Source: Cellvibrio sp. KY-YJ-3
Lineage (GTDB): Bacteria > Pseudomonadota > Gammaproteobacteria > Pseudomonadales > Cellvibrionaceae
Assembly: GCF_008806955.1 (NCBI RefSeq)
Contig: NZ_CP031727.1
Location: 3,300,001-3,364,000 of the forward strand
Length of the DNA stretch: 64,000 nt
Direction of reading: 5' to 3'
Both the position numbers and the translations under genes were made by a program. The notes beneath the pieces were generated by a model. The model worked only from the letters and a program-made list of their open reading frames with translations, ran no database searches and was not told where the DNA came from. Shown here one piece after another: positions 19,460 through 48,632 of the stretch (position 1 is its first letter; every line of letters begins with the position of its first letter).

Positions 19460-19751
19460 TCACATCGATCTCTGCATAACCCACACTGTTATTTGCGGAA
19501 GTATTTTGCAGAGCACGTAACAGCCCCAAGTGTAAAACTTGCGTTCTAATCCAGATTATTTCTGGGTTTGAGCCAGCTCAAAATCATGACATAACATTGA
19601 AAATCGAGGGGCGCCGCCAAGCACCAGACTGTGGGATAATGCCCAACTCTTATTTGGGCCAAGTCATCAGCGCAGCGAAACCAGCACCTTGCAGCCCGCC
19701 AACAATAGAATTATTTATATATAAATCAATTACTTAAAAGACATTTACACA

Positions 19752-19838
19752 ATGAATGCAATAGAGCCAACAGATCAGCACACACCGATGATGCAAAGGT
19801 GTTTACCATTTATATTTCAACAACTTATAGAATAAATA
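19752..19838 (+). pseudogene. mutS: Stranded native 5' end of mutS at the left end of the mobile element
   Basis: An ATG at 19752 opens a frame of 28 codons whose first fifteen read MNAIEPTDQHTPMMQ, then diverge and stop at 19836-19838. The intact mutS at 34628 reads [20 protein letters not shown], so both share QHTPMMQ. The two DNA copies share CCGATGATGCA at the point of divergence (19785-19795 and 34658-34668). The sequence upstream also matches: TATATAAATCAATTA lies 70 bases before the Met-Met codons here and 69 bases before them at the intact gene. This is the original mutS promoter and start, cut off from its gene by the element. It could still be transcribed and make a short peptide. 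Confidence 0.85.
19785..19795. repeat. attL core (left end of the integrative element)
   Basis: CCGATGATGCA, an 11-base perfect match to 34658-34668, placed in the same mutS codons at both ends. Chromosome lies to the left (AraC regulator, native mutS start) and element sequence to the right. Recombination between the two copies would restore a MutS beginning [21 protein letters not shown]. The exact crossover base within the repeat cannot be seen. Confidence 0.75.
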
Positions 19839-20175: not shown

Positions 20176-20855
20176 TCCCATGATCCCCGCACTGAAATAA
20201 CTCACACTCTATAACATGACCCAAGCACTGAACGATCTTGCTGAACAGGATGCACTGGCATTCCAGAAGAGCACTGGCATCCTTGATCATTTACTCAAAG
20301 CAGAGCTGGCCGAGCGCGAGGTGCGTTCGGTAGCCTATCAACTGAAGACCGCTAAATTCCCCCACCTATCGTGATATCAGTGGTTTTGATTTTACGAGCA
20401 GCATGGCCAATGAGACATTGATCCGGCAATTGTGTGCAGGTGACTTTATGGATAGCGCACAGAATGTTGTACTTGTCGGTGGCCCCGGTACGGGTAAAAC
20501 CCATCTCGCCAGTGCCATCGGCATTCAAGTGATTGAACAGCTGCATCGCCGTGTCCGGTTCTTCTCGACAATTGAATGAGTGAATGCGTTGGAGAAAGAA
20601 AAGCAACAAGGTAAAGCTGGGCAAATTGCGTCGCGCTTGATGCATACCGACTTGGTGATTCTGGATGAGATGGGTCATTTACCCTTCAGTCAAACCGGTG
20701 GTGCGCTGTTGTTTCACTTGATGGGCAATTTGTACGAATGCACCAGCATGATCATCACCACCAATCTCAGCTTTGCCGAATGGTCGAAGGTATTTGGTGA
20801 TACAAAGATGACAACGGCATTGTTGGATCGAGTTACCCACACCCCAAACCCGTAA
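20165..20855 (+). pseudogene. istB: IS21-family istB remnant (helper ATPase, multiply broken)
   Basis: IstB-type AAA+ helper of IS21 transposition, degraded. Seen: the start at 20165, an in-frame TAA at 20198-20200, the N-terminal segment to about 20355, then a one-base gain in a run of C near 20358-20363 that shifts the frame. Next comes the Walker A region VLVGGPGTGKTHLAS, an in-frame TGA at 20577-20579 in place of a normal codon, then the Walker B region [12 protein letters not shown] and [11 protein letters not shown]. The frame ends early at [11 protein letters not shown] without the normal C-terminus. A TGGGTCAGTTTTAAATGC stretch at about 20871 looks like the right end of such an IS. 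Four independent lesions make it a clear pseudogene. Confidence 0.88.
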
Positions 20856-20879: not shown

Positions 20880-21379
20880 TTTTAAATGCAAATCAACAGA
20901 CTGCTCGTAGATCGTAGCGAATTGGCAAGTTAGATGCGGTAGAGGGTTGTTTTTCTGAGTTGCGCGCAATCCGCTCAGAGCCGTCGTTTGGCCCTGACGT
21001 CTGAAAAGTTTGCGGTGAGCCAGCCTATTTCAGGGGGATATTCGAAAGTTGGGATTGGATTCGCTCAATAAGCTTAGCGACAGGACTGAATTGGCGATGG
21101 CTCGAGATTTGATTACGACCTAACTAGCTCGTCTAACTCAGGGGAGGAACATTTTGAAATAGGAAATTAAGTCTAGACCTAAATTCCTGTGCAATGCCCT
21201 ACTTTTTTGTAGACGTTGCACCGGCCGAGGCGCCCTCTTCCTTCGCGCCAATCTTAATCGTTATCGAGTCTTTCGTTGTAGGGTGAATATTTAATCAATT
21301 GGCGCTTGAATTATGAAAAGCCCGCCTCATATACTCCATTTAAAGATTAATTTCTGAGACATGGAGTTGATAATAACAA
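20880..21379. other. Intergenic 0.5 kb: IS scar and cargo-operon promoter region
   Basis: No intact gene is seen. The left part is the IS21 right-end scar. On the minus strand a short open tail of about 29 codons ends in a TAG near 21199 with the residues SITIKIGAKEEGAS. It may be the remains of another cargo gene, but it is too short to identify. The right part holds the probable promoter of the four-gene cargo operon. Confidence 0.5.
21306..21335 (+). promoter_or_regulatory. Probable sigma-70 promoter of the E2-E1/JAB cargo operon
   Basis: A -35-like TTGAAT (21306-21311) and a -10-like TATACT (21330-21335) are separated by 18 bases and lie 45 bases before the ATG of the 4-TM gene. The -10 matches the consensus at five of six positions. 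Assigned by eye. Confidence 0.55.
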
Positions 21380-22159
21380 ATGAATAATTTGGGAAGACTA
21401 TTTGATGGGTATGCTCGCACCGCCCGGCTATATCCTGCGCTGCTCACTTTCGCTCCATTGGTTTGGACATTGGGTTTTCTACATCCACAACTGATCACCG
21501 GAAGTAATTCAAAGATGGTGGCGGGCCTCATTGGAGCTTTTGGCGGATTATTCCTGTTATCCAGCATCGCTCGGCATTGTGGAAAGCGGGCTGAACTTCG
21601 GCTTTTCCGCCAATGGGAAGGGGCAAGAACTACAACGTTACTTCGTCATCGAGATGACTCCATTGACCCCTTTACTAAAGCAAGGTATCACTCTGCCCTT
21701 CAAAAATTGTGTGGAAAATTGCTCACACTACCGACTGAGCAGCAAGAGTTTGCGTCTCCTGCGGAAGCTGATCTCAAGTACGAGTCGGCAACTAAGTGCC
21801 TAATTGAAAATAGAAGGACGAAAGAGTATTGGCTGGTTCACCACGAGCTCGCCTCTTACGGATTTCGACGAAATCTTTTGGGTTTAAAACCCATCGGTCT
21901 AATCATTCTTACGATTGCAATCGCAGTGAATTTGATTAGCTGGTATCACGCTCTCCATCCGATTGATGAAGGTTTAAACCAAATTTTAGAAGACGTGATG
22001 ATCAGATGGCAGCTGTATGCGTTGTTTCTCGCGAATCTTGGATATTTTGCCGTCTGGCTCTTCATTATCAACGACCGCTTTGTTTTGCACTCGGCAGATG
22101 AATATGCGGTCGCGCTTTTCAGGTCTCTGGAGAGCTCTAATCATAAGAAAGTATCGTAG
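21380..22159 (+). CDS. Four-transmembrane protein of unknown family, first gene of the E2-E1/JAB operon
   Basis: A 259-aa protein that I do not recognise as a named family. Seen: two hydrophobic helices at about 18-35 and 47-64, a ~100-residue soluble middle rich in charged residues (65-168, with RTKEYWLVHHELASYGFRR just before the third helix), and two more helices at about 170-188 and 212-230, then a short hydrophilic tail. This 2+2 layout with a cytoplasmic middle resembles membrane-acting effectors of anti-phage systems, and it is first in a tight operon with MBL, E2-E1 and JAB genes. It is therefore a plausible membrane effector or target of the modification; that is inference. The ATG is preceded by GGAG at a long spacing. 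Confidence 0.75.
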   Translation: MNNLGRLFDGYARTARLYPALLTFAPLVWTLGFLHPQLITGSNSKMVAGLIGAFGGLFLLSSIARHCGKRAELRLFRQWEGARTTTLLRHRDDSIDPFTKARYHSALQKLCGKLLTLPTEQQEFASPAEADLKYESATKCLIENRRTKEYWLVHHELASYGFRRNLLGLKPIGLIILTIAIAVNLISWYHALHPIDEGLNQILEDVMIRWQLYALFLANLGYFAVWLFIINDRFVLHSADEYAVALFRSLESSNHKKVS

Positions 22160-22209
22160 GTTCATTTTGCACAAAAGGGTTTCAATATTTTCAACTAGTG
22201 AGGAAGGTT

Positions 22210-23388
22210 ATGGGTGCAAGAATAGAGTTTTTCCCTGTAGACAATGGCGATATGACTTTGCTTACATTAAATGGTGGGCGTCGAATACTGATAGATATCA
22301 ATATTCGGAAAGCTGCGGATGACGAGAATGATTCGACTACTATCGATGTTGCCTCATTACTCCGATCAAGATTAGATCGCGATGAAGATGGACGGTTGTA
22401 TGTTGATGTATTTCTACTGACTCACCCGGATAAGGATCACTGCTCTGGATTGGAGCGACACTTTCATTTAGGCCAACCTGATGAATGGAATGAGTCCGAA
22501 GATAAAATTTTAATTAAAGAAATGTGGTCATCTCCCATTATTTTCCGGCGTCAAAAAGAGGTTGAAGGAGGTCTTTGTCCAGACGCGGACGCTTGGTGGA
22601 AAGAGGCTCGTCGGAGGGCTCGCCTGTATAAATCGGCGACGAGGAAGGAAATCATAGGGAGCGGAAATTTAATTCAAATCTTGGGCGAGGACAAGGATAA
22701 TAAAACTGACGACTTAACTGAAATCCTTGTTAAGACCAATACTGAAATCGTTAAGATTTGCGGGGTGGAAGAGGGCGATTTTCGTGCGTGGTTACTTGCC
22801 CCCCAATTGGTATGTGATGATGAACTTGAGCAACTAACAGGAAAAAACCATTCTAGCACTGTGATTCGTTTTGCGATTCATGCTGATGGTATGGACGGTG
22901 CAGGGTTATTCCTGACTGGCGGCGACGCGCAAGTGGAAAATTGGGAGCGCGTTTGGAAGCGAAACAGCGATCATCCAGATAGATTGACTTACAACGTTTT
23001 GCAAGCTCCGCACCATTGTTCCTGGCGATCTCTTTCTTACGACAGTTGGAGCGATAAAGGAGATTCTGTGAAAGTCAGTCAAGATGCGCGAGAAGCCTTG
23101 GCTCAAGCAGCAGAAAAATCTTTCATCGTCGCAAGCTGCAAGGAAATCAAAGATGACAAAGATCCTCCTTGCATCCGCGCGAAGCAGGAGTACATTGACA
23201 TTCTTTCTGCTCGTAGTGGCGAATTTCTGTGTACAGCATCTGAGTGCGAAAATGATGTGCTCACACTAGAGATAGATCGCAACGGCCCTTCAAGACCATC
23301 AAAGAAAAATAAAGGCGGGCTCTTAAGTGGCTTGGCAGCAGCGATGCCTCGAAAAGTCGAAAAGGACGGTGGCGGGCGCTATGCCTAA
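22210..23388 (+). CDS. ComEC/Rec2-like metallo-beta-lactamase-fold hydrolase
   Basis: MBL-fold protein of 392 aa resembling the nuclease-like C-terminal domain of ComEC. Seen (numbering from ATG 22210): THPDKDH, with H72, D74, D76 and H77 as the first metal motif; NHSSTVIRF, the Asn-x-x-Ser strand typical of ComEC-type MBL; LTGGDAQ with D239; and APHHCSW with H268/H269. So the metal site looks complete. The ATG at 22210 has a good AGGAAGG just upstream, preferred over GTG 22198. The C-terminal ~25 residues are Lys/Gly-rich and end in DGGGRYA, a diglycine-containing tail like that of ubiquitin-like proteins before processing. It overlaps the E2-E1 gene by 8 bases. Likely activity: phosphodiesterase or nuclease; alternatively a nucleotide-signal hydrolase. 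Confidence 0.85.
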   Translation: MGARIEFFPVDNGDMTLLTLNGGRRILIDINIRKAADDENDSTTIDVASLLRSRLDRDEDGRLYVDVFLLTHPDKDHCSGLERHFHLGQPDEWNESEDKILIKEMWSSPIIFRRQKEVEGGLCPDADAWWKEARRRARLYKSATRKEIIGSGNLIQILGEDKDNKTDDLTEILVKTNTEIVKICGVEEGDFRAWLLAPQLVCDDELEQLTGKNHSSTVIRFAIHADGMDGAGLFLTGGDAQVENWERVWKRNSDHPDRLTYNVLQAPHHCSWRSLSYDSWSDKGDSVKVSQDAREALAQAAEKSFIVASCKEIKDDKDPPCIRAKQEYIDILSARSGEFLCTASECENDVLTLEIDRNGPSRPSKKNKGGLLSGLAAAMPRKVEKDGGGRYA

Positions 23389-25168
23389 TACGCTGCTTGC
23401 CGCTCATAGCAATTTCGATAGATCGAAGGGACTGCTATCTTCTTGGTTGCGACAAAATCTTTCGTCGGTGGTGGCACTGACGAAGGATTCACTAAACCTT
23501 TACAGAGAAGGAAGATTTATCGCGGGCTGGAGCGGCAATGTTGTTGTAGATGAAAAGGTACTTGCCTTCCATATATTAATTGATTCAAAATTTCCCTATA
23601 GCGCCATAAGGCTTGCTTATAAATCTGAAAATGTATACACGAAGTGGCCTCATGTTGATGACGTAACAGGGCTACTATGCTTGCCAAAAAAAAATGCTCC
23701 AAATGGAGATGTTCACGCTGCAATTTATTCATCGTTTTTCGAAGCGATGGTTCTTATTGAGAAGTGTCAGAATCCAGATTTTTTAAAAGAAGAGTTCAGG
23801 CGAGAGTTTTTGTCCTATTGGGAGCGTCGAGAAAACATAGCTGAAGATTCCATTCCAATCCGCTCTCTTCTTGACTTGAACAACACTAATTCTAGAACTA
23901 TACAAGTTTGGCGAGGAGCTAAATACACGCTGGTTGGTGAAACTAAGGAGCAGGTTTGCTCCTGGCTTCAAAATATTGGGTTTAAAGGCGAGCCCACGTT
24001 GGAGCGAGGAATCTTTGGTTTTTTAGCGGAAGCTCCTTATCCTCCGTTTCCGCAAAATCCAAACCAACTCTTCTCGTTATTAAGCCGCTGCACAAAGAGT
24101 ATTGATGCTTTACTATCCGGGTGCCAACATACAACACGCTCACTATTCGTTTTAGCTGCAAACTCTCCTACTGGTGTGGGTGTCATTGCTATGCAGTTGA
24201 GCGCAGTCACTAAATCCAAGCTAAAAGGCTTTCGAAAAAAAACTAAGTTAAGTTCGGCATCTAAGAAGATAATCTGGAATAAATACAGTGAGCTCAAATG
24301 TCTTGCTGTAGAACGATATGAAGCAAAATGGGTTCATGGCCGAGATTTAGATCCACACCACAAACTTGTGCAGCAAGCACATATCCTAGTTCTAGGATGT
24401 GGATCTTTAGGATCACAAGTTGCAATACGCTTAGCTCAAGCAGGTGTAGGTAATTTGACATTAGTCGACCCAGAACTGTTGGTTCCCGCAAACGTCGGTC
24501 GCCACGCATTAGGCATTGACTCAGTTAATAAGTCGAAGGCTCACGAACTTGCTAAACATATTCGGTCGCGTTTTCCGCACGTAAGCCATGCCCAAGGGTT
24601 TCGCATGCCGTGGCAGACTTATTTTGAGAGAACCGTCGGATTTGACAGTGATGTAAATGTATTGGTCTCGTGTTTAGGGGAATGGCCCGCAGATGGGCAA
24701 TTAGCGGAGTGGTATGCACGAACAAAACCCACATACCCTATAGCCTTCGGCTGGCTTGATGAGCACGGAACAGCGGCTCATGCGATTGCGCTGAATAATT
24801 CCACCCCTTCATTATTTTGTATTTTGAATGAGAATGGCAACCTGAGAATTCCCGAGACGCTTTGGAAATCAGATAGAGAGAAACAAGCTGAACCTGCGTG
24901 CGGCACTCTTTTTCAACCTTATGGGCCATTGGATCTTGCTAACGCGGAGATTCTGGTTGCTCGACTATGCTTGGATATATTAAAAGGAAGTGCCAGTTTT
25001 CCGTCTCATCGAATATACGCAGGTTCGACGGAGGATATTCAGCAAGCTGGAGGAGAATGGTCAGCAACGCATTTACAAAACCGCCCGGCTGAATATCAAG
25101 GTCCTTTTGAATATTCTAGATCAGTTCCCTACTGCGGTCAGTGCCCTGTCTGCGCGGAGAAATCATGA
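23381..25168 (+). CDS. E2-E1 fusion: ubiquitin-conjugating-like plus ThiF/E1-like activating enzyme
   Basis: A 595-aa protein with the architecture of Cap2 of type II CBASS: N-terminal E2-like domain, linker, C-terminal E1 adenylation domain. Seen: WPHVDDVTGLLCLP (89-102), matching the HPN...G.(I/V)CL active-site region of E2s, so C100 is the probable E2 cysteine; a poorly conserved middle (about 165-320); then the Rossmann ATP site VLGCGSLGSQVA (337-348), D363, and NVGRHALG with R374. An EPACGT segment (C507) is the candidate E1 cysteine. The C-terminus ends in CGQCPVC (585-591), a likely zinc knuckle. The ATG at 23381 overlaps the MBL stop. Predicted to adenylate a protein C-terminus and pass it via thioesters to a target. 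No CD-NTase or ubiquitin-like gene is adjacent. Confidence 0.87.
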   Translation: MPNTLLAAHSNFDRSKGLLSSWLRQNLSSVVALTKDSLNLYREGRFIAGWSGNVVVDEKVLAFHILIDSKFPYSAIRLAYKSENVYTKWPHVDDVTGLLCLPKKNAPNGDVHAAIYSSFFEAMVLIEKCQNPDFLKEEFRREFLSYWERRENIAEDSIPIRSLLDLNNTNSRTIQVWRGAKYTLVGETKEQVCSWLQNIGFKGEPTLERGIFGFLAEAPYPPFPQNPNQLFSLLSRCTKSIDALLSGCQHTTRSLFVLAANSPTGVGVIAMQLSAVTKSKLKGFRKKTKLSSASKKIIWNKYSELKCLAVERYEAKWVHGRDLDPHHKLVQQAHILVLGCGSLGSQVAIRLAQAGVGNLTLVDPELLVPANVGRHALGIDSVNKSKAHELAKHIRSRFPHVSHAQGFRMPWQTYFERTVGFDSDVNVLVSCLGEWPADGQLAEWYARTKPTYPIAFGWLDEHGTAAHAIALNNSTPSLFCILNENGNLRIPETLWKSDREKQAEPACGTLFQPYGPLDLANAEILVARLCLDILKGSASFPSHRIYAGSTEDIQQAGGEWSATHLQNRPAEYQGPFEYSRSVPYCGQCPVCAEKS

Positions 25169-25647
25169 CCTTACGATATGAGCTTCCTCTTCAGTGGGGG
25201 ATCGTTGAGTTTTCTTCTGAAGTGTTGGAGCATTTTGAAAAATTTAAGCAGCGTCATTTTTGCTCTCTTGAAGCGGGAGGACAACTTTTCTTTACTTTGA
25301 GCAAGGACAGTACTGTCACCAAGATAACCGACGTTACCGGACCTCGAGACACTGATAAAAGAGGGCGAAATAAATACGTTCCTGATCGTGCGGCTGAAAA
25401 AGTGGAAATTTCGGAGAGGTATGAGCGTAATTTACATTTTATCGGAGATTGGCATACGCACCGCGAAAAGTCACCACGCCCATCTCCTACTGATACGACT
25501 AATATCTACGATTTGGTTCGATTAAGTGATCATGACTTACCCGGATTCCTAATGGTAATTGTTGGATTGTCAGACTTTCCGTTCGGTCTTCATGTATCGT
25601 TCCATTCTGCAACGATGTCATATATTTTATCTCCGCTGTCCGACTAA
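25165..25647 (+). CDS. JAB/JAMM metalloprotease (Cap3/BilC-like deconjugase)
   Basis: Zinc peptidase of the JAB/MPN superfamily, 160 aa. Seen: E36 in SLEAGGQLF, then GDWHTH with H97 and H99, seven residues, then SPTD with S107 and D110. This is a complete JAMM motif (E...HxH-x7-S-x2-D). Relatives cut isopeptide bonds or trim tails of ubiquitin-like proteins, and Cap3 reverses Cap2 conjugation in CBASS. The ATG at 25165 overlaps the E2-E1 stop (ATGA) and has GGAGA upstream, so it is translationally coupled. It is the last gene of the operon; the 316 bases after it hold no gene that I can see. Predicted role: precursor trimming or deconjugation of whatever the E2-E1 fusion attaches. Confidence 0.9.
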   Translation: MTLRYELPLQWGIVEFSSEVLEHFEKFKQRHFCSLEAGGQLFFTLSKDSTVTKITDVTGPRDTDKRGRNKYVPDRAAEKVEISERYERNLHFIGDWHTHREKSPRPSPTDTTNIYDLVRLSDHDLPGFLMVIVGLSDFPFGLHVSFHSATMSYILSPLSD

Positions 25648-29511: not shown

Positions 29512-31170
29512 TTATATTTCATCTAGATCGGCATCCAGCTTATTTTTAATTTTAGACAATGGAGCTAACTGACTCCGTTGCAAGCGATTAACAACAGGCA
29601 AGTCAATGAGGGGGACTCGTAGGCGGGACCAACCAATGCCTGCGATTTTTATGTAGCCCCGGAGGTCGTCCAGCTGCATAATTTCCGACGCCAATACCGC
29701 CCGACGTGACTCAATTTTTGTTGTGGTGGATACACTTCCTTTTCCGCTGTGAGTTTTGCTTTCTGCCAAAATTTCACCATCACCAATCGAGCGACTTAGA
29801 TATTCCGCGGTGTCTGCATCTGGAGTTCGCAAAATCACGCTGTGACCGACACTACCTATAATCGATTTGGTTTCATCCGCACCGTAAATAGAATAGAGTT
29901 GATTAATATTTTGAAATGCTAATGTTAGATTAACTCCATATTTACGCAGCTTTGACACGGCCTGCGAAAGACCTCCAATCCGTCCATTTGATGATAATTC
30001 ATCCAAAAACATCCAAATTCTGCGCTTAGTACTGGGCACGAGACTAAATCCTTCGGCAATCATAAGGTTGATCCACATTCCTCTAAGTATTGAAGTAGAA
30101 GCCGCAGTGGCATCATCGTAAATAATCCAAAGATTCCCTTTTTTATGGTCACTTGACATCCAATTTCTCACACTAAAAGATTTGTGATCCGCGTCCGGGT
30201 TTAAAAGCTCAAGCGACTTAATCGCCTCGCTAACAATTCCAAGCACATCGTCAATTTTTTTCTCGTTCGAGCTATCAAATACTCTATGCGCCGTCGTTCC
30301 TTTTACCAACTCTCGTAGCTCTTCACGGCTTGCATATGAAGCATAATAAATAAGATCGCGATTTGTGGTTTTACCTCGCTCCAAACACTTTTCAAAGATC
30401 ACAGTCATTACACCTCTCGCAGATTCGAACCATGCCTTTGATTCGCCAACACCTTCAGCAATAAGAGAATTAGCAATCAAACGACAATCCGTTTTCACTT
30501 TTATGTCAGCAAAAGGTGATGTGTCGATTCCGTTCACATGTACCGGGGATAAAACTATGTCGTTAACTCGTCCCAACCTGCGGTATATATCGCCATTAAT
30601 ATCCACACATGCATAGGAGTCGCCACGCCGGAGTATCGAAAGTATCATCTTTAGTATGAGCTGCGTCTTTCCAGTACCAGGTTCTCCGCACAATAAAAAA
30701 CATCGCATTTCTAGCTCTGTGGGAATTGCATACCCTCCAATTGAGATCGGAACTTTTGACACGCCCTTTCTCTTAATCGCTTTTATCATTTTTTCTCGAG
30801 GCATCAATTTTGCACCCCGAATGATTTTTTCCGACCCAGTCATTAGTATCATTATGATGAGCAGTGTCCATGCCACTAAGGCTCCGACAACTAAACTTAC
30901 CCAGCTAGCGAGCTCTACCCATGTAGTGATTAGGCGGGGAAATGACTGTGCAGTGCCAAGAACCATCCGTTCGAAAATAGCTGACTCTTGATATAGGTTT
31001 CTAAGTAGATCCGCAAAGGTGAACCAGCCATATGTAGATGCACCCATAAACGCAATGAAGATTAGAGAGCCACTAGCTTTACCTCGTGCAAAACCGATAA
31101 GTAGTGCTAACATTGCCGCAGCGAGTGCCGATATTTGTGTTGTTAAAACTGGGGGCATATCGAAGTTCAT
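29512..31170 (-). CDS. Type IV coupling protein (TrwB/TraD family)
   Basis: Inner-membrane DNA-pumping ATPase of 552 aa that brings the relaxase-DNA complex to a type IV secretion channel. Seen: two or three N-terminal hydrophobic segments (about 9-27, 35-52 and 92-111), Walker A CGEPGTGKT (161-169) and a Walker B strand reading RIWMFLDELSS, then the conserved AFQNINQLYSIYG motif. Length fits TrwB (507 aa) more than TraD. Its start overlaps the AlpA-like stop (ATGA), so these two are coupled. No other T4SS genes exist in the element, which must borrow a helper's channel. Confidence 0.92.
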   Translation of the reverse strand: MNFDMPPVLTTQISALAAAMLALLIGFARGKASGSLIFIAFMGASTYGWFTFADLLRNLYQESAIFERMVLGTAQSFPRLITTWVELASWVSLVVGALVAWTLLIIMILMTGSEKIIRGAKLMPREKMIKAIKRKGVSKVPISIGGYAIPTELEMRCFLLCGEPGTGKTQLILKMILSILRRGDSYACVDINGDIYRRLGRVNDIVLSPVHVNGIDTSPFADIKVKTDCRLIANSLIAEGVGESKAWFESARGVMTVIFEKCLERGKTTNRDLIYYASYASREELRELVKGTTAHRVFDSSNEKKIDDVLGIVSEAIKSLELLNPDADHKSFSVRNWMSSDHKKGNLWIIYDDATAASTSILRGMWINLMIAEGFSLVPSTKRRIWMFLDELSSNGRIGGLSQAVSKLRKYGVNLTLAFQNINQLYSIYGADETKSIIGSVGHSVILRTPDADTAEYLSRSIGDGEILAESKTHSGKGSVSTTTKIESRRAVLASEIMQLDDLRGYIKIAGIGWSRLRVPLIDLPVVNRLQRSQLAPLSKIKNKLDADLDEI

Positions 31171-31493: not shown

Positions 31494-33134
31494 ATGAACA
31501 GAAAAGTAAATTTTTCCATCTACAGCGGGCTTCCAGATGACTACCTGGAGTATTTTGAAAAGAACCTTATTCCCCTTAGTCAAAATAATTACTCGGATAA
31601 CATGCTGAAGGCATTGATGTCACTTCATGAGGCTATAACTGAACGAAAGTCTATCGGAGCCGGTATTTGTGAGGGGATGAAATTAAAGACGGGAAAAAAT
31701 ATTGCCTTTTGGCATTTTCTAACGGGTTTGCCTATTTCTACGAATGGTGGCGATTTTCTGAATTCACTTGGTTACACCAATGACCTCGCGCACTTTTGCT
31801 CAATAGACTGCAATGGAATTTTAAATATTGCGATTAGCGGGATAGACACTCTCACACGACTCTCTATCGCAAACGAAGACCAAGTATTACTATCCCTAGC
31901 CACTTATGAAGCTCTAATCTTCAGTGAAGTCAACGAACTTATTGAAAAAAAACAGTTTTATTGGCCATCAGAAATCCACAATTTTCCACTTGAAGATCAG
32001 GCAGCAAATCAAAAACTAGTAAGCTGTTTGATTTCTCAAAACCTGCTCACTGAACCAATCAATGAATACCTATTAGCTAGAAACAGCACGATTGTCACTG
32101 AAGAATTGCAAGAAACCGGATCATTTATTCGAGATGTATACGCACTTGTAAGCCGAAGTAAAGGGGATGATCAGCGCGCACATGAGCGCCGCAAGAATCT
32201 TCAAGATCAAAAGCCACTTAGACCAATCGCGGAATTGAACGATTTTTTTGAAACTGAGGCGACTAGAGTTTTAACTAAGGTTCTAAAAAGTGACGTATCA
32301 AAAAAAAATCTACAAAGGATGCTTAAACCTCTTTATCCAAAGAGAAAAAATTCGCCTCAATATGTGTTAGCCGGTTTTTGTCTGATGTGTCACAGGAAAG
32401 CTGATAGAGATGAATACTATTGCCCCACTCACACAAAACCAACAAAAAAACCAGAAGATATTGGAAAGCAAGATCGAAATAAATCACTAAAGAAAAGAAT
32501 TCACCAAGCCTTCGATAACCTTGGCTATCTGCTACTTCATGAGAAGGCGGCACTCATAAAATACCCGAGAATATTAAAAAAATACAATATCATCACTGAA
32601 CCACACAAAGAAATTAGAAACCGCATCCAAAATAATTACAAAGAAATTTTCATCAATTATTTAAAAAGATTGGGATTGACAGAGAAAGAAATTTTAATCG
32701 AAAAAGCCTATTTTTTATCCGGCTGGGGCATGCATCACCCTCTTCATAAAAAATTCTATAAAAAACTTCGAGCAATAGAGAAAGCATATATAAAGTCAGA
32801 TAATTGTTGGTCGATATCCTCTCTTAGCATGCTAAATGACATACTGCATATGAGCAAGGACCAGAACCAGGACCACCCGCATACGAGAGACCTCTTTCCA
32901 GCCACTCTAGGACTGTTTCAATGTAATGAAAAAGAGCTTGGCTCACTTCTAGCGATTCAAAACTCAATGTTAGATGGAGATATCACTGAGCTGCTATCTC
33001 CATCTGAATTTATTGAGTGCATTAATCGGCTCAGCATTTTTAAACTAATCGAAATTGCATCCAGCAAACGAAAATATACCTCTGTAATTAATAAAGATTA
33101 TCTGCCTGCCAATTTAATCAAGTCATCTATATGA
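31494..33134 (+). CDS. Unknown 546-aa protein with a CxxC-x10-CxxH zinc motif
   Basis: I do not recognise this family. Seen: no signal peptide or membrane segment, a mostly helical and Lys/Asn-rich sequence, a lower G+C composition than the flanking chromosome, and one probable zinc site C296-x2-C299-x10-C310-x2-H313 within GFCLMCHRKADRDEYYCPTH. A basic linker follows. It is divergent from the AlpA-like gene and overlaps the convergent integrase gene by 37 bases at the 3' end, so it belongs to the element's core rather than its cargo. Possible roles are control of integration, replication or a second defence factor; none is supported directly. Confidence 0.75.
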   Translation: MNRKVNFSIYSGLPDDYLEYFEKNLIPLSQNNYSDNMLKALMSLHEAITERKSIGAGICEGMKLKTGKNIAFWHFLTGLPISTNGGDFLNSLGYTNDLAHFCSIDCNGILNIAISGIDTLTRLSIANEDQVLLSLATYEALIFSEVNELIEKKQFYWPSEIHNFPLEDQAANQKLVSCLISQNLLTEPINEYLLARNSTIVTEELQETGSFIRDVYALVSRSKGDDQRAHERRKNLQDQKPLRPIAELNDFFETEATRVLTKVLKSDVSKKNLQRMLKPLYPKRKNSPQYVLAGFCLMCHRKADRDEYYCPTHTKPTKKPEDIGKQDRNKSLKKRIHQAFDNLGYLLLHEKAALIKYPRILKKYNIITEPHKEIRNRIQNNYKEIFINYLKRLGLTEKEILIEKAYFLSGWGMHHPLHKKFYKKLRAIEKAYIKSDNCWSISSLSMLNDILHMSKDQNQDHPHTRDLFPATLGLFQCNEKELGSLLAIQNSMLDGDITELLSPSEFIECINRLSIFKLIEIASSKRKYTSVINKDYLPANLIKSSI

Positions 33135-34378
33135 TCAGCCCACTTTTGCAACCACACCCGACACTCAGCCTCATATTTATGCAAATCATATGTCCCCTCT
33201 ATACCCTTCCGAGAATGCCCTAAAATAGCCTCACCGACTTCGCTCGGGCACCCCAAGCGAGACAGCCCTGTTCGTACGGTTCGCCTTAAATCATGCGGAG
33301 ACCAGTGGGCAATATCAAGCATCCGTTTAGTTTCTCTTAATTTCCAAGCCTGTTCTGTGATGCTCTTTTGCTGAATTTGAATGCCTGTTTTTTGGCTTGG
33401 GAAAGGAAAATCACCAGTAATTAATTTTAACTGCTTGAGAAAATCCACCGCTTGTGTCGGTAGCTGGACGTACCGCTCAGTTTCTGTTTTAGTTTTTACA
33501 TGCCAATAACGCTTTTCAAGATCAATGTCAGCCCATCGGGCATCGCATACTTCACCAGTTCTACATCCAGTCCATAATGTGAAGCGAAGAATATTTTTTT
33601 GTGTTGGTGTGAATACCGAGCCGGGTAACCATGTTAGAAATTGAACTAATTCTGAGTCGTTGAGCACCCTCTTTCCTTTCTGCGAGGTCAGCCTAACTTT
33701 AGCTCTACGTAAACTGTTTTTGGCTTGCAATGCAGGGTTTGCAAAAGTATCGTCAAATTTCTCTAACCCTATCGAAAATTCATACGCTGCTGACAGCTCA
33801 CGCACCACGTTACCTGCTTGAACATTAGCTCCACGATCAACAATTTCAATTATCATTTTCACAATATCTTTACGTGTAACCTCTACTGCTTGACGATCCC
33901 CCAGAACCCGCACGGCATCGCTATAGAGTGTTCGGCGGACCTCTTTTTGCCCCTTTTCTTTTCTGGCCCCACCTATGACGCGCCCGTCAACCTGCCTACC
34001 CTCTATGTAATATTCAAGATAAAAATCGATCATCTGCTTAACTGAGTAGGATTTAAGCTCAATAGTTTGTGAAGCCAGCCTCCCTTCTTGCTTTGATGCT
34101 TTTTGATCCGAAGCTGGGCAGCGCCCCATTTTTCGAAGCTGCTTCAATTCCCCCAAACGAACACGTGCCTTGGCAAGAGTAGTTTCTGGAAATCTTCCTA
34201 TGTGCATTTGCACCAACTTGCCAGTAACCGGGCTCGTATATCGATAGTAAAATGACTTTGCCCCCGCTGCTGCACAGCTGACTCTTAACCCCCGATTTTC
34301 CCCACTATCAGCCAAATCAGCACAACCCGGTTTCATTGCACTGATGCTATTGCTGTTCAACTGAGCTTTCTTAGTCAT
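33098..34378 (-). CDS. int: Tyrosine recombinase integrase of the mobile element
   Basis: Site-specific recombinase of 426 aa. Seen: an N-terminal arm-binding-type domain (about 1-100, with FYYRYTSPVTGKLVQMHIGRF), a core-binding domain, and a catalytic domain with R273 in TGCRTGEV, HDLRRT (H362, R365), H388 in ILGHSRKG and the nucleophile Y397 in GTYDLHKYE. So the complete R-H-R-H-Y set is present. It is transcribed away from mutS, its start 250 bases from the intact mutS ATG, with the arm repeats (34498-34521) and attR in between. The gene location beside the attachment site is usual for integrases of this type. It probably catalyses both insertion into and excision from the 5' end of mutS. 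Confidence 0.93.
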   Translation of the reverse strand: MTKKAQLNSNSISAMKPGCADLADSGENRGLRVSCAAAGAKSFYYRYTSPVTGKLVQMHIGRFPETTLAKARVRLGELKQLRKMGRCPASDQKASKQEGRLASQTIELKSYSVKQMIDFYLEYYIEGRQVDGRVIGGARKEKGQKEVRRTLYSDAVRVLGDRQAVEVTRKDIVKMIIEIVDRGANVQAGNVVRELSAAYEFSIGLEKFDDTFANPALQAKNSLRRAKVRLTSQKGKRVLNDSELVQFLTWLPGSVFTPTQKNILRFTLWTGCRTGEVCDARWADIDLEKRYWHVKTKTETERYVQLPTQAVDFLKQLKLITGDFPFPSQKTGIQIQQKSITEQAWKLRETKRMLDIAHWSPHDLRRTVRTGLSRLGCPSEVGEAILGHSRKGIEGTYDLHKYEAECRVWLQKWADHIDDLIKLAGR

Positions 34379-34591: not shown

Positions 34592-34668
34592 TATATAAAT
34601 CAATTAATAAACAAGTAGTTAACCTTAATGATGGCTGAAGAATTCACGCAACACACCCCGATGATGCA
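34592..34668 (+). promoter_or_regulatory. Element-borne replacement of the mutS 5' region (includes attR core 34658-34668)
   Basis: TATATAAATCAATTA at 34592-34606 lies 69 bases before the mutS Met-Met codons, and the stranded native copy at 19718-19732 lies 70 bases before its own. The start ATG and the codons for [13 protein letters not shown] are contributed by the element end; CCGATGATGCA at 34658-34668 is the attR core. The element therefore carries an imitation of the mutS leader and first codons, so the gene stays open after insertion. The promoter itself is inferred, not seen as consensus boxes. Confidence 0.7.
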
Positions 34669-37273
34669 GCAGTACTTGCGCATCAAAGCCCAACATAAAG
34701 ACGAGATAGTGTTTTATCGCATGGGGGATTTTTACGAGCTGTTTTTTGATGATGCAAAGCGCGCATCCCAAATTTTGGACATCACCCTCACCGCGCGCGG
34801 CAAGTCCAATGGCGAGCCGATTCCCATGGCGGGCATTCCGTTTCATTCCGCTGATGGCTATCTCGCCAAATTGGTGAAAGAGGGAATTTCGGTCGCCGTG
34901 TGCGAACAAATTGGCGACCCGGCAACCAGCAAAGGGCCGGTTGAACGCAAGGTGATGCGCATTGTGACGCCGGGTACTGTGAGCGATGAAGCATTGCTGG
35001 ATTCGCGCCGCGATAATTTATTGGTGGCATTGCATCAATCCGGCGAGACGTTTGGGATCGCCTCACTGGATATGGCCAGCGGTCGCTTTCTGGTTTTGGA
35101 AGTGGAAGGCTTGGAATCGGCGCTTGGAGAACTGCAGCGCTTGAGTCCCGCCGAATTATTGATCAGCGATCACATCACCACCCCAGCATTGGTGGAGAAT
35201 CGCAAAGGCTTGCGCCGCCGCGGCCCCTGGGAATTTGATTTGGAAACCGCCGAGCGGTTGTTAATTCAACAATTTTCCACCAAAGATTTAGCGGGGTTTG
35301 GTTGCGACCATTTAAAAACTGCACTCTGTGCTGCCGGTTGTTTATTAAGTTACGCGCGCGAAACCCAGCGCACTGCCCTGCCCCATGTGCGCAGCCTTGC
35401 GCATGAGAACCGCGATGAAGCGGTCATTATGGATGCAGCAACTCGTCGCAATTTGGAGCTCGATATCAATTTAACGGGCGGCGATGAACACACGTTATTT
35501 TCGGTGTTGAATCGCGCAGCCACCAGTATGGGCAGCCGATTATTGCGCCGCTGGTTGAATCGCCCACTGCGCGATTTGGATTTATTGATCGGCCGACAAG
35601 ATGCAATTGCCGAGTTACAACACAATTATGCGTTTGAAATTTTTAATGGCATTTTAAAACGTGTCGGCGATATGGAGCGCATCCTTGGTCGCCTTGCATT
35701 GCGCTCAGCGCGCCCGCGCGATTTATCGCGGTTATTGATGTCGATTGGTACTTACCCTGAATTACAAAACGACCTTGTACAAAAAAAATCTCCACAATTA
35801 AAAAAACTTGCGCAACAAATTTCCACATTTCCTGATTTAGTGGAATTGTTATCGCGCGCGATTATTGAAAACCCACCGGTGGTGATTCGCGACGGCGGTG
35901 TTATCGCTGAAGGTTACGATGCCGAGCTGGATGATCTGCGCAATATCAGCACGAATGCTGGCCAGTATTTATTGGATTTGGAAACACGTGAACGCGAGCG
36001 CACGGGTATCCCGACATTAAAAGTCGGCTACAACCGTGTGCACGGTTATTTTATTGAGTTGACCACGGCGCAATCGGAAAAAGCACCTGCGGATTATATT
36101 CGTCGCCAAACCTTAAAAAATGCCGAGCGTTACATCACCCCCGAACTAAAAGAATTTGAAGATAAAGCACTATCGGCACAGAGCCGTGCGCTTGCGCGCG
36201 AAAAAGCTCTCTATGAAGAATTGATTGATATTTTGAACGTGCAATTAATTCCATTGCAGGATTCAGCGGCTGCCGTTGCCGAATTGGATGTGCTCGCCAC
36301 ACTCGCCGAACGCGCCGATGCACTCGGATTTTGTAAGCCGGAATTATCTTTGCGCGCGGGCATTAATATTGTTGGCGGCCGCCACCCGGTGGTTGAGCAA
36401 GTGACATCAGCGCCCTTTGTGCCGAACGATCTGGAATTTAATCCGCAGCGCCATATGCTTATCATCACCGGCCCGAATATGGGCGGTAAATCGACTTATA
36501 TGCGGCAGGCAGCGTTGATCACATTGCTCGCGCACATTGGCAGCTTTGTGCCAGCGCAAAAAGCGACGATTGGTATTGTTGACCGCATCTTTACCCGTAT
36601 TGGTTCAGCGGATGATTTAGCCGGTGGCCGCTCAACCTTTATGGTGGAGATGACGGAGACTGCGAATATTTTGCATAACGCTACCGAGCGCAGTTTGGTA
36701 TTGATGGATGAAATCGGGCGCGGCACGAGCACCTTCGATGGTTTGTCGCTTGCGTGGGCCTGCGCAAAACATCTCGCCGAAAAAGTGCGCGCGTTTACTT
36801 TGTTCGCCACTCACTATTTTGAAATTACGACACTGCCGGAAACCGTGACAGGCATCGCCAACGTGCATTTGAATGCAACCGAGCACAAAGACAATATTGT
36901 GTTCCTGCACAAAGTACAGGAAGGGCCTGCCAGCAAAAGTTATGGTTTGCAGGTGGCAAAACTTGCAGGTATTCCCGCGCAAGTATTGGCGGAAGCGCAG
37001 CAACAGTTGCATCTGCTGGAGAATGGCGAACATCCGCATTCGATTAAATCATCTCCTTCGGTAGCAGCCCCAAGTATTACAGTGGCAGAGGCTGTACAAC
37101 AAACTAATGATTTAGTTACTACACTTGTGTCGCCGTTGCAGTCAGGTCTGTTCGATGCATTGCCCAATCCGGCGCTGGCGGCACTGCATAAAATCAATCC
37201 CGATAACCTCAGCCCGCGTGAAGCGCTGGAGCAGTTGTATCGCCTGAAAGAACTCTACGCCAAGGGAAAATAG
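34628..37273 (+). CDS. mutS: DNA mismatch repair protein MutS
   Basis: Full-length MutS of 881 aa, the ATPase that recognises mismatches and starts repair. Seen: the mismatch-reading F35-Y36-E37 in [10 protein letters not shown], Walker [10 protein letters not shown] from residue 615, the following [14 protein letters not shown] and [12 protein letters not shown] motifs, and the THYFE helix near the C-terminus. The first 13 codons or so come from the mobile element. The native N-terminus is MNAIEPTDQHTPMM while this one is [13 protein letters not shown]; the change precedes the F-x-E loop, so activity is likely kept. ATG 34628 and 34631 are both possible starts. fdxA follows, the gammaproteobacterial order. 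Confidence 0.97.
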
Positions 37274-46664: not shown

Positions 46665-47405
46665 TTACACCACTGGGTGAACTACGCCCAGTTCGCATAA
46701 CTCTTTCACAAGCGACCCAGCATCAGACGTAAATTGCTCCGGATGAGGATGAGATAACTCACCGGCAATTATTGTCAATAGTTCGCTCAAAGAAGAGCCT
46801 TGGTTAACCTGCATTAGATAAAGTAAACGCAAAGTCATGGGATTAACAGCCATAAAGCAAACTTTATCGCTGCTGTTACGGTAGACAACCAAATCTACCG
46901 GTTCAGGTAGTATCGGTTTAAAACGCGGGGAAATTTTATGGACGGGGTACTGATAATGCAATGCAATCGCCAAGGGAGACACACAAAAACTGGCAGCAAA
47001 AATATCATTTGTAGCTAATTTGTACTCTGGCAGTTGCGCTTCACTGATATCCAGTGCCAATTCAACCCATTCGTAATGCGCCAATTCACATATAAAAGGC
47101 AATTCAGGCAATAAATGCGCAGACTGGGTAAGGAACTGTAAAAACTCTTCACTGATTTCCAAAAAATAAGGGGTTTGGCAGCGGTGATGTTGGATAAATT
47201 GCCGTACCAAGCCATGCCATTGCTCATCATTCAGCAATGAGCGCAATACCGGAAATACGCCGGCGACTAAATTTTCAATATTGTTGTAAATCAGATCGCG
47301 ATAAATTTCCATGCGTCGCGCTTCCATCGCGGCGGGTATTGCGTATTCATCCGGTGCGCGCAAATAGCGGGCGAAATCCATTTGAGTTTGCTGAAAGGAT
47401 TTCAT
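46665..47405 (-). CDS. DUF2063 protein, bufferin-partner (BufC/HvfC-like)
   Basis: A 246-aa protein with the N-terminal DUF2063 domain (MKSFQQTQMDFARYLRAP through PVLRSLLNDEQW). DUF2063 proteins partner MNIO (DUF692) enzymes and present the RiPP precursor to them. It starts two bases after the DUF692 stop, with ATG 47405 and AAAGGATT-type upstream bases, and is the third gene in the bufA-bufB-bufC order. No signal peptide. All normal. Confidence 0.85.
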   Translation of the reverse strand: MKSFQQTQMDFARYLRAPDEYAIPAAMEARRMEIYRDLIYNNIENLVAGVFPVLRSLLNDEQWHGLVRQFIQHHRCQTPYFLEISEEFLQFLTQSAHLLPELPFICELAHYEWVELALDISEAQLPEYKLATNDIFAASFCVSPLAIALHYQYPVHKISPRFKPILPEPVDLVVYRNSSDKVCFMAVNPMTLRLLYLMQVNQGSSLSELLTIIAGELSHPHPEQFTSDAGSLVKELCELGVVHPVV

Positions 47406-47406
47406 G

Positions 47407-48249
47407 TTACAAACATTGTGACTGGCGCTGTTTGATGAAGTCCAATTCACTCATCAATTCAGGCAAAGGTGGAATATTAAAATCGCGTTCGAGCAGGGTC
47501 GGCTTTACGCCAAAGAGCGCATAACTTTTTTCAAGCAGCGCCCATACAGAGTCAATGATTGCTGTACCGTGTGTATCTACCCGTAAATCGTCAGCCTCTT
47601 CATAATGCCCTGCGATATGAATATACGCTGTGCGCTCACCAGGCAAACTGGCCAAAAACTCAAAGGGATCATAGCGATGATTGATACTGTTCACGTAGAT
47701 ATTATTAACATCCAGCAACAGCGCACAATCCGCTTTTTTAATTACCGCATTAATAAATTCACTCTCACTCATCTCTTGTTGCGGCGCGCAATAATAGGAT
47801 GAATTTTCTATCGCGATACGTTGCCCCAAAATATCCTGCGCTTGCTGAATGCGTGCAGCAACATAATCGACAGCCTCTTCCGTAAATGGAATAGGCAACA
47901 AATCGTATAGCTGACCATCGTCAGAGCAATAACTTAAATGTTCGCTGTAATAACGAATACCATGTTCTTGCATCAACTTTTTTATAGCGTGCAATAGTTC
48001 GGTATTTAGCGGTGCAGGTGAACCAATAGAAAGCGATAAGCCATGGCACACAAACGGAAAACGTTCAGTATAACGGCGGAATTTTTTACCCAGACGCCCA
48101 CCAAGATTAATCCAATTTTCCGGTGCAACTTCCATAAATTGGATGTCATCAGGCGTGGATTGCTCAAGGGCATCAAGCAAACTCCGGCGCAGGCCCAAAC
48201 CTGCACCGGAGATGGGAGCCACATAATTTGTGGGTAACAACTGGCTCAT
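47407..48249 (-). CDS. DUF692 multinuclear non-haem iron oxidase (BufB/HvfB-like)
   Basis: A 280-aa TIM-barrel enzyme of the MNIO family that oxidatively modifies cysteine residues of a RiPP precursor. Seen: metal-binding residues in the expected places, H69 in CHGLSLSIG, E103/H104 in YSEHLSY, E148/N149 in AIENSS, D180 and N182 in LDVNNIYVN, H211 and H215 in HIAGHYE, and D225/H227 in DTHG. Its start overlaps the precursor stop by one base (TAATG). The precursor directly upstream has nine cysteines in EGKCG-type repeats, the typical substrate of this group. Confidence 0.9.
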   Translation of the reverse strand: MSQLLPTNYVAPISGAGLGLRRSLLDALEQSTPDDIQFMEVAPENWINLGGRLGKKFRRYTERFPFVCHGLSLSIGSPAPLNTELLHAIKKLMQEHGIRYYSEHLSYCSDDGQLYDLLPIPFTEEAVDYVAARIQQAQDILGQRIAIENSSYYCAPQQEMSESEFINAVIKKADCALLLDVNNIYVNSINHRYDPFEFLASLPGERTAYIHIAGHYEEADDLRVDTHGTAIIDSVWALLEKSYALFGVKPTLLERDFNIPPLPELMSELDFIKQRQSQCL

Positions 48250-48632
48250 TACTCTGCTTTTTTATCCGCGCCGCATTTGCCTTCGCCACACTTGCCTTCA
48301 CCTGCAGCTTTTTTATCGGCACCGCACTTACCTTCGCCGCACTTACCTTCGCCACATTTGCCTTCACCGTCTGCTTTTTTATGCTCGGCGCCGCACTTGC
48401 CCTCACCGCATTTGCCTTCACCATCGGCTTTTTTATGCTCAGCACCACACTTTGCTTCGCCGCACTTGTGCTCACCCTCGGTTTTACCCGCATGGTTATC
48501 AGCCAAGGTATAACCGGTATTGAGTGAAGTGGCGGTAAAGCTGGTATCCGCAGAAGCCAGGGGTGAAAGCGTGGCAGAAGCAGCAAATGCAACACCCATT
48601 AATGCAGACATAGAAGATATTTTGTTATTCAT
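48249..48632 (-). CDS. Bufferin-type RiPP precursor with EGKCG repeats
   Basis: A 127-aa secreted, low-complexity precursor. Seen: signal peptide MNNKISSMSALMGVAFAASATLSPLASA (about 28 residues), a short linker, then nine Cys-Gly units: one EHKCG, one EAKCG and seven EGKCG, spaced by Lys/Ala linkers such as AEHKKADG. In the described bufferins and HvfA relatives such cysteines become modified rings that bind copper and protect against metal stress. The ATG at 48632 has GGAGTC upstream; a longer reading adds 27 residues of no sense. No DoxX (BufD) gene is present beside it. Metal specificity unknown. Confidence 0.88.
   Translation of the reverse strand: MNNKISSMSALMGVAFAASATLSPLASADTSFTATSLNTGYTLADNHAGKTEGEHKCGEAKCGAEHKKADGEGKCGEGKCGAEHKKADGEGKCGEGKCGEGKCGADKKAAGEGKCGEGKCGADKKAE

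What the first reader, a model, noticed from the sequence alone, without database searches (positions are those of the whole stretch)
21380..25647. Four-gene cargo operon: 4-TM protein, ComEC-like MBL, E2-E1 fusion, JAMM peptidase - candidate undescribed ubiquitin-like defence system
Seen: four plus-strand genes in a tight operon (8-base MBL/E2-E1 overlap, ATGA E2-E1/JAB overlap) inside a mobile element. The E2 cysteine (C100 in GLLCL), E1 nucleotide site (GCGSLG) and a complete JAMM motif (E36, H97, H99, S107, D110) all look intact, as does the MBL metal site. Established: E2-E1 fusions with JAB peptidases (Cap2/Cap3) conjugate and release the C-terminus of the CD-NTase in type II CBASS, and related bacterial Bil/Bub operons attach ubiquitin-like proteins. 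Here no CD-NTase and no ubiquitin-like gene is present. I recall comparative surveys of prokaryotic E1/E2/JAB operons (Iyer, Burroughs and Aravind) describing MBL-containing versions but cannot confirm a match. Inference: an anti-phage system in which the MBL or 4-TM protein is the modified partner or effector.
Basis: partly seen in the sequence, partly recalled or inferred. Interest (0 to 1): 0.92.

Follow-up and report, generated by a model that had tools for sequence, protein, structure and literature searches.

The report
Nuclease-like protein with ubiquitin-style tail
A bacterial mobile element carries a probable anti-virus gene set in which a nuclease-like enzyme ends in the same attachment tail as an unrelated immune enzyme, suggesting that ubiquitin-type enzymes fasten this nuclease to other proteins.

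Summary
The four genes are real and intact (21380-25647), but not wholly undescribed: the MBL passes NCBIfam's 'anti-phage 6A-MBL' model (392 bits, cut-off 220), and Iyer et al. 2006 described MBL + E2-E1-JAB operons (row 6a). The E2-E1 and JAB are not of the 6A kind: the E2-E1 fails the 6A model and groups with type II CBASS Cap2 (100/100). I found eight distinct hybrids of this sort.

Main new inference: the MBL is the conjugated protein. Its disordered tail RKVEKDGGGRYA matches 10 of 12 terminal residues of a CBASS cyclase served by a related Cap2; the two proteins are otherwise unalignable. Other 6A-type MBLs end in [HAY]G plus 0-5 residues (44 of 44 distinct tails, five broken or fused ORFs set aside). 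In type II CBASS that tail is what Cap2 attaches to lysines (literature). Gene overlap explains at most the last two residues.

The 4-TM protein fits no curated model, yet sits in 18 of 37 dereplicated MBL loci, and beside other MBLs without E2-E1. Nuclease activity, targets and phage defence remain inferred.

The parts
21306..21335 (+). possible sigma-70 promoter (TTGAAT-18-TATACT) ahead of the operon
   Evidence: consensus scan; 10 such sites found against a shuffled mean of 8.3, so weak
21380..22159 (+). 4-TM membrane protein (259 aa), no curated family
   Evidence: no curated model reached; 23-row alignment; Y11, A15, R16, P19, R65, G161, R164, N165 invariant; model
22210..23388 (+). MBL-fold hydrolase, 6A-MBL family, ComEC-like
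   Evidence: NF058524 392 bits vs cut-off 220; fold match 9ic4
22423..22440 (+). MBL metal motif H72-P-D74-K-D76-H77
   Evidence: invariant H72, D74, D76, H77 in 27 aligned sequences
23350..23385 (+). C-terminal tail of the MBL, RKVEKDGGGRYA: proposed conjugation tail
   Evidence: (residues 367-392 disordered)
23381..25168 (+). E2-E1 fusion, CBASS Cap2-like
   Evidence: Prok-E2_B and ThiF; PADLOC E1-E2 PDLC00836 E 7e-142; tree
23678..23680 (+). E2 catalytic cysteine C100
   Evidence: invariant in 5 aligned sequences
24899..24901 (+). candidate E1 catalytic cysteine C507
   Evidence: invariant in 5 aligned sequences
25165..25647 (+). JAB/JAMM peptidase, Cap3-like
   Evidence: Prok-JAB 36.8 bits, cut-off 25; PADLOC JAB PDLC00891 E 1e-49; JAMM residues
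25964..28738 (-). TrwC-type relaxase of the mobile element (context)
29512..31170 (-). TrwB/TraD-type coupling protein (context)
33098..34378 (-). tyrosine integrase of the mobile element (context)

Best explanation
The locus is a hybrid anti-invader cassette: the MBL of a 6A-MBL system placed under a type II CBASS-type conjugation pair. The E2-E1 (Cap2-like) adenylates the carboxylate of the MBL's C-terminal alanine (..VEKDGGGRYA), carries it as a thioester on the E1 and then the E2 cysteine (C507, C100), and joins it to lysines of one or more targets; the JAB (Cap3-like) cuts it off again. The MBL thus holds the place that the CD-NTase holds in type II CBASS, but instead of making a second messenger it is itself the effector, most likely a ComEC/HamM-like DNase. 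The 4-TM protein is a membrane partner or effector working with the MBL. Shown here: gene content, intact catalytic motifs, the shared tail, its disorder in the model, the E2-E1 tree, the recurrence of the 4-TM gene. Inferred: conjugation of the MBL, DNase activity, role of the 4-TM protein, anti-phage function.
For: E2-E1: 22 hybrid and CBASS rows against 17 fused 6A rows, 100/100 support; nearest plasmid relatives are Cap2 genes: of 8 contexts opened, 7 have a nucleotidyltransferase next to them and the eighth is another MBL hybrid. Tail: 10 of 12 terminal residues shared with the cyclase of L125, where no other BLASTP alignment is below E 0.3; V at -10 in 7 of 8 hybrid MBLs and 10 of 11 cyclases against 6 of 44 other MBLs and 81 of 1420 background ORFs, [KR] at -8 in 8/8, 7/11, 0/44, 211/1420; last-8 similarity to cyclase tails is higher for hybrid than for other MBLs, p 4e-6. 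The model folds residues 1-361 well and leaves 367-392 disordered. Other 6A-type MBLs keep a different but equally fixed end, [HAY]G plus 0-5 residues, 44 of 44. In type II CBASS the cyclase's terminal Ala/Gly is joined to lysines by Cap2 and released by Cap3 (passages of PMC11153139; passages of PMC10097602). MBL: ComEC fold, invariant metal residues; related defence MBLs are DNases (passages of PMC12799240). 4-TM: in 18 of 37 dereplicated MBL loci.
Against: No wet-lab data. In all 8 hybrid MBLs the E2-E1 start codon lies inside the TAT-GCN codons, so the final Tyr-Ala could be forced by gene overlap; 5 of 11 cyclases keep Tyr-Ala/Gly without that overlap, and the VEK..GGGR part lies outside it. 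Seven of the 12 tail codons are identical in the window and L125, so the tail may have come with the E2-E1 DNA. The weakest hybrid tail (L092) scores no better than 22 of 1486 background ORFs, and tail counts are not phylogenetically independent. The JAB misses NCBIfam's Cap3 cut-off (44 vs 200 bits). The 4-TM gene is absent from 19 of 37 loci and occurs with other MBLs without E2-E1/JAB, so it is not bound to conjugation.
Confidence: 0.66

Rival explanations
1. The MBL is the acceptor, or a bystander, and the E2-E1 conjugates something else: a host ThiS/MoaD-like protein or an unseen small protein.
For: Iyer et al. [quoted passage not shown] Unannotated ORFs under 80 aa were not examined.
Against: The tail shared with CBASS cyclases goes with the E2-E1 type, not with the MBL's own closest relatives; no ubiquitin-like gene recognised nearby.
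Confidence: 0.12
2. The tail likeness is a by-product: start-codon and Shine-Dalgarno overlap at the MBL/E2-E1 junction, or recent transfer of the junction DNA with the E2-E1 gene.
For: E2-E1 ATG inside TAT-GCN in 8 of 8 hybrid MBLs and 6 of 11 cyclases; G-rich codons just upstream could serve as a ribosome-binding site; 7 of 12 codons identical between window and L125.
Against: Five cyclases lack the ATG at that place and keep the residues; V at -10 and K/R at -8 lie 24-30 bases upstream; the neighbouring E2-E1 proteins have diverged to about 30% identity while the tail has not; other 6A-type MBLs keep [HAY]G without the overlap in 6 of 6 junctions examined.
Confidence: 0.1
3. The MBL is not a DNase but a nucleotide phosphodiesterase or other hydrolase whose product or signal activates the 4-TM protein.
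For: Fold list also holds a phosphodiesterase (7dck, E 2.6e-4), RNase J and the cyclic-nucleotide-cleaving Apyc1 (7t28, E 9e-4); a membrane protein partner is recurrent.
Against: Best match by far is the ComEC domain (9ic4, E 1.4e-12); related defence MBLs cut DNA (PMC12799240, passages).
Confidence: 0.22
4. The cassette serves element maintenance or competition between mobile elements, or a stress response, rather than phage defence.
For: It rides on a mobilizable element; relatives are common on plasmids (248 records); the EMBO J 2026 paper notes that Bub operons have not been shown to protect against phage.
Against: NCBIfam names the MBL family anti-phage; WYL regulators of the kind linked to CBASS stand beside relatives (one tested, L019).
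Confidence: 0.2

Closest known systems
6A-MBL system (NCBIfam NF058523/NF058524; operon type 6a of Iyer et al. 2006)
   Same: MBL of the same family (392 bits vs 220), next to E2, E1 and JAB domains; conserved C-terminal end on the MBL.
   Different: Here E2-E1 and JAB are separate genes of CBASS type (64 and 34 bits to the fused 6A model, cut-off 320); the MBL tail is ..GGGRYA instead of [HAY]G; a 4-TM gene belongs to the operon.
Type II CBASS (CD-NTase, Cap2, Cap3)
   Same: E2-E1 and JAB of the same clade, same gene order (substrate gene, E2-E1, JAB), same C-terminal tail on the upstream protein.
   Different: The upstream protein is an MBL, not a CD-NTase; no patatin, SAVED or other cyclic-nucleotide effector seen.
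HamM/CanC/Avs1-type MBL pro-nucleases (PMC12799240, passages)
   Same: ComEC-like defence MBL with a partner that could control it.
   Different: Control there is by a trypsin- or caspase-like protease; here by a conjugation/deconjugation pair, with no such protease recognised.
PADLOC PDC-M48B MBL beside the same 4-TM family
   Same: The 4-TM family is paired with an MBL.
   Different: A different MBL subfamily, without E2-E1/JAB in the stretches fetched and without the tail.
Bil (BilABCD)
   Same: E1, E2 and JAB activities in one operon (PMC11354881, passages).
   Different: Bil has an ISG15-like modifier and separate E2; none seen here.

Membership tests
6A-MBL system (NCBIfam) | MBL above the NF058524 cut-off | tested here: met
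   392.1 bits, cut-off 220
6A-MBL system (NCBIfam) | fused Cap2-Cap3 protein above the NF058523 cut-off | tested here: not met
   E2-E1 64.2 bits and JAB 33.8 bits, cut-off 320; the genes are separate. A fused relative, L019, scores 553
6A-MBL system (NCBIfam) | E2-E1 in the 6A clade | tested here: not met
   17 fused 6A rows form one side of a branch at 100/100; the window is on the other side
Type II CBASS | CD-NTase in the operon | tested here: not met
   the operon has an MBL in that place; four genes identified; a 546-aa and a 116-aa element gene gave no Pfam family
Type II CBASS | Cap2-type E2-E1 | tested here: met
   groups with 14 CBASS Cap2 rows, 100/100
Type II CBASS | Cap3 by NCBIfam NF050170 | tested here: not met
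   44 bits, cut-off 200
Type II CBASS | Ala/Gly-ended conserved tail on the protein encoded before Cap2 | tested here: met
   gene overlap is a partial confounder
Type II CBASS | Cap2 conjugates that tail to lysines and Cap3 reverses it | not testable with these tools
   needs biochemistry
Bil | ISG15-like (two-Ubl) BilA and separate E2 | tested here: inconclusive
   the E2 is fused to the E1, which is not the Bil layout; no Ubl gene recognised among ORFs of 80 aa or more, but no Ubl profile was run
Bub | its own operon layout | not tested
   no Bub models or members at hand
S_4TM (PF18159) effectors | match to the Pfam model | tested here: inconclusive
   no hit for P0001 at E up to 1, nor for two relatives at E up to 0.1; a profile miss does not exclude distant kinship
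PDC-M48 | MBL matching PDLC04676 over its length | tested here: not met
   window MBL matches 20 residues at E 2e-4; relatives beside the 4-TM match over the whole length

The most novel reading that the evidence does not exclude
A nuclease-type enzyme is the ubiquitin-like modifier itself: 6A-MBL and its CBASS-type hybrids are a sister class of type II CBASS in which a metal-dependent MBL, not a nucleotide cyclase, is attached through its C-terminal tail to cellular or phage proteins and released by a JAB peptidase, with an exchangeable membrane protein (4-TM or small-TM family) as partner. Nature has run the tail-swap experiment, perhaps twice: MBLs that sit under CBASS-type E2-E1 carry the CBASS tail, their 6A relatives carry [HAY]G.
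Probability: 0.6. Interest if true: 0.85.

Novelty: new variant of a known kind. Interest (0 to 1): 0.74.

Why it matters
What the 6A-type E2-E1-JAB enzymes conjugate, given that these operons hold no ubiquitin-like gene, has been open since the operons were described in 2006 as far as I could see in the papers at hand. The tail comparison gives a direct, testable answer: the MBL. If true, ubiquitin-style conjugation in bacterial immunity is not tied to cyclases or to ubiquitin-fold proteins; the same enzyme pair can be re-aimed at an unrelated enzyme by moving a tail of about 12 residues, which also offers a simple handle for engineering and for finding further substrates by tail search. The unannotated 4-TM family gains a context that makes it a testable effector.

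Tried and rejected
Wholly new system: rejected, because NCBIfam, PADLOC and Iyer et al. 2006 cover the MBL family and the operon type.

Ordinary 6A-MBL member: rejected, because the E2-E1 and JAB miss the 6A model and fall in the CBASS clade.

Single origin or two origins of the hybrid: undecided. Window + L001 separate from the other six in both the E2-E1 tree and the MBL tree, but holding the eight together is not rejected (p-AU 0.105 and 0.17). The trees carry long-branch and composition warnings.

4-TM fold: no PDB match at E 0.001 or below; VIA-align gave Z up to 8.6, mostly GPCRs, not meaningful for a helical bundle. Stator proteins (ExbB, MotA, PomA) recur in the weak Foldseek list at E 0.5 to 2.6 with TM-scores under 0.3: not pursued.

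S_4TM as the 4-TM family: no profile match; a genome search for PF18159 gave one sub-cut-off match in 143 genomes and none in the window's genome.

Phage records: no relative of the L111 E2-E1 among 50,697 phage records. Own genome: one such E2-E1 only; two further partial E1-type matches at E 1.5e-13 and 1.2e-10.

Rows dropped before counts: one search used 61 of the 75 loci (14 lacked a full-length MBL or enough flank) and 37 after 90% dereplication; its MBL2 column is unusable because that profile also hits the first MBL., 116 left out five ORFs (L051, L055, L062, L063, L070: broken, fused or cut) from the other-MBL tails, and one cyclase (L090, near L091; it is). The tree used 17 fused loci chosen by me, and left out L080 (cut), L086 (context not seen) and L090. 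In the L082 cyclase five residues after the tail were trimmed for comparison, and the other MBL tails were trimmed to [HAY]G, so their -1 count is by construction. In one search, before these exclusions, 43 of 55 tails had [HA]G near the end; the other 12 were copies of hybrids, broken ORFs, and L069 and L115, which have YG.

Literature: nine searches. '6A-MBL' and 'PDC-M48' gave 0 papers. No paper that I saw describes conjugation of the MBL, but subscription journals and preprints are not in the library, and I saw search listings and passages only, no whole paper. CapW (PMC9122588) was seen in a listing only.
Full report
What is there. Four plus-strand genes, 21380-25647, tightly packed: 4-TM protein, MBL-fold hydrolase, E2-E1 fusion, JAB peptidase. 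All named catalytic residues are intact. They lie on a mobile element with integrase, AlpA, coupling protein and TrwC relaxase.

What it is called. The MBL scores 392 bits against the NCBIfam equivalog 'anti-phage 6A-MBL system MBL-fold protein' (cut-off 220); the E2-E1 and JAB score only 64 and 34 bits against the fused 6A Cap2-3 model (cut-off 320). The name goes back to row 6a of Iyer et al. 2006: a fused E2-E1-JAB protein next to an MBL (PMC1779556, passages; that the NCBIfam name derives from this row is my inference). PADLOC places the E2-E1 (PDLC00836, E 7e-142) and the JAB (E 1e-49) among its E1-E2 and JAB models. The 4-TM protein reaches no curated model.

Relatives. A search of genome contigs with the MBL, which finds close relatives only, gave 75 loci. 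Of these, 61 had a full-length MBL and enough flank, 37 after dereplication at 90% identity: 33 have a fused E2-E1-JAB, 3 a separate E2-E1 and JAB, 1 neither detected; the 4-TM family is in 18 of 37, the 4-TM or a second, small-TM family in 20 of 37, and in 0 of 17 CBASS loci, though some of those stretches are short. The 4-TM gene stands upstream, downstream or divergent. It also goes with fused 6A loci on a Bacteroidota and a cyanobacterial plasmid (L115, L121). The reverse test: 38 plasmid records hold a 4-TM match; 17 of the 30 listed are also among the 40 listed for the MBL. I opened 10 of the 38: two have the 6A set, six have another MBL beside the 4-TM gene and no E2-E1/JAB in the stretch (one of these MBLs broken), one has insertion-broken pieces of both, one a 4-TM piece without MBL. 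Three of these other MBLs or their like were scanned and match PADLOC PDC-M48B (L019, L117, L120). So the 4-TM protein looks like a partner of MBLs rather than of the conjugation pair.

Hybrids. Window and L001 carry the 4-TM gene; the other six carry the small-TM family. So a membrane protein is present in 8 of 8.

Where the E2-E1 belongs. tblastn of plasmids with the E2-E1 finds Cap2 genes; of 8 contexts opened, 6 have an annotated DncV-like cyclase directly upstream, 1 another nucleotidyltransferase with SAVED and exonuclease genes, 1 is the Aeromonas hybrid. In a tree of 39 rows the 17 fused 6A proteins are separated from 14 CBASS and 8 hybrid proteins at 100/100; hybrids lie in two places among CBASS rows, though one clade is not rejected (p-AU 0.105). 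In the MBL tree, tail removed, window + L001 again separate from the other six and sit with the fused-type MBLs at weak support (85/66); one clade is not rejected (p-AU 0.17). Both trees come with long-branch and composition warnings.

The tail. The last residues of the hybrid MBLs look like those of the cyclases that stand before related Cap2 genes: window RKVEKDGGGRYA, L111 AAVNRQGGGGYA, L060 NAVNKSGRNIYA, against cyclases L125 RPVEKQGGGRYA, L105 and L083 AAVNKQGGGRYG, L093 EAVDKRGGGRYG. These cyclases match NCBIfam's cGAS model (L105 and L083 above, L125 and L082 below the cut-off). BLASTP of the window MBL with the L125 cyclase aligns the terminal 12 residues (10 identical, E 0.004); the next best alignment has E 0.31. 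The last ten residues of the window MBL share 9 with L125 and at most 4 with any of 1420 background ORFs. V at -10: hybrid MBLs 7 of 8, cyclases 10 of 11, other MBLs 6 of 44, background 81 of 1420. Other MBLs end in [HAY]G plus 0-5 residues in 44 of 44 distinct tails after five broken or fused ORFs were set aside; [HA]G within the last eight residues occurs in 161 of 1591 background ORFs. The AlphaFold2 model is confident for the core and disordered for residues 367-392, and NCBIfam's model stops at residue 359, so the tail is outside the annotated family. Five complete MBLs of the other subfamily that stand with a 4-TM gene but no E2-E1 lack such an end (L116, L117, L119, L120, L122); being another subfamily, they are a weak control.

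Confounders. In all 8 hybrids the E2-E1 start codon overlaps the Tyr-Ala codons; this is so for 6 of 11 cyclases, while 5 keep Tyr-Ala/Gly without it, one of them followed by five more residues. The G-rich codons may double as a ribosome-binding site. Seven of 12 codons agree between window and L125, so the tail could have travelled with the E2-E1 gene; but the E2-E1 proteins have drifted to about 30% identity, so retention suggests selection. The weakest hybrid tail, L092, is matched by 22 of 1486 background ORFs in the similarity score. None of the tests corrects for shared descent.

How it probably works. In type II CBASS, Cap2 joins the C-terminal Ala/Gly of the cyclase to lysines, PspA in one case, and Cap3 reverses it; mutating the last residue abolishes immunity (PMC11153139, passages; PMC10097602, passages). 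By the shared tail and shared enzymes, the MBL here is the conjugated protein. Its ComEC-like fold, invariant metal ligands and kinship with defence MBLs shown to cut DNA (PMC12799240, passages) make a DNase the likeliest activity. Conjugation would tether, prime or restrain it; the 4-TM protein would be a membrane partner or second effector. The 4-TM model has no informative structural match.

Known or new. Known: the MBL family, the operon type, the enzyme pair. [quoted passage not shown] Not found in nine searches of the library: conjugation of the MBL, the tail switch, the 4-TM partner. Preprints and most subscription papers are not in that library, so a published account of 6A-MBL may exist.

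Noticed in passing
window 19718-19799 and 34592-34700: Both ends of the mobile element share 15-bp repeats (TATATAAATCAATTA at 19718 and 34592; another at 19855 and 34498), and by eye the left end holds a piece resembling the 5' end of mutS (from the ATG at 19752), while mutS itself starts at 34628: the element seems to sit in the start of mutS and to supply it with a new 5' end.
   Followed up: partly
window 20580-20855: Remnant of an IS21-type IstB ATPase (profile positions 133-219 of 238) just upstream of the cassette.
   Followed up: partly
L111:5514-5984, L113:8223-8693, L107:9450-9920, L108:4471-5007, L014:9550-10029, L060:9388-9900, L061:9439-9996, L092:7064-7597, L112:872-1399: A second, small-TM protein family (about 156-185 aa, no Pfam match for the three tested) beside 6A-type MBL loci; it replaces the 4-TM gene in six of the eight hybrids and occurs with it in L014 and L107.
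   Followed up: partly
L116, L117, L119, L120, L122: Two-gene units of a different MBL (two of them scanned: PADLOC PDC-M48B) plus the 4-TM protein without E2-E1/JAB, in Rhodococcus, Acinetobacter, Staphylococcus and Microvirga: a possible minimal MBL + membrane protein system.
   Followed up: partly
L092:3668-4852 (Aeromonas salmonicida plasmid pBY3): Annotated as 'cobalamin biosynthesis protein CobQ' but passes the 6A-MBL model at 318 bits.
   Followed up: yes
L055:6001-9408: MBL, E2-E1 and JAB in one 1135-aa reading frame in Methylomonas, without the usual ..PHG end before the E2 part; perhaps a frameshift or a true fusion.
   Followed up: partly
   Followed up: no
window 46665-48713, minus strand: A small protein with repeated GEGKCGEGKCGA-like Cys motifs beside what look like DUF692 and DUF2063 genes: probably a bufferin-type (MNIO) peptide operon; names recalled, not searched.
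   Followed up: no
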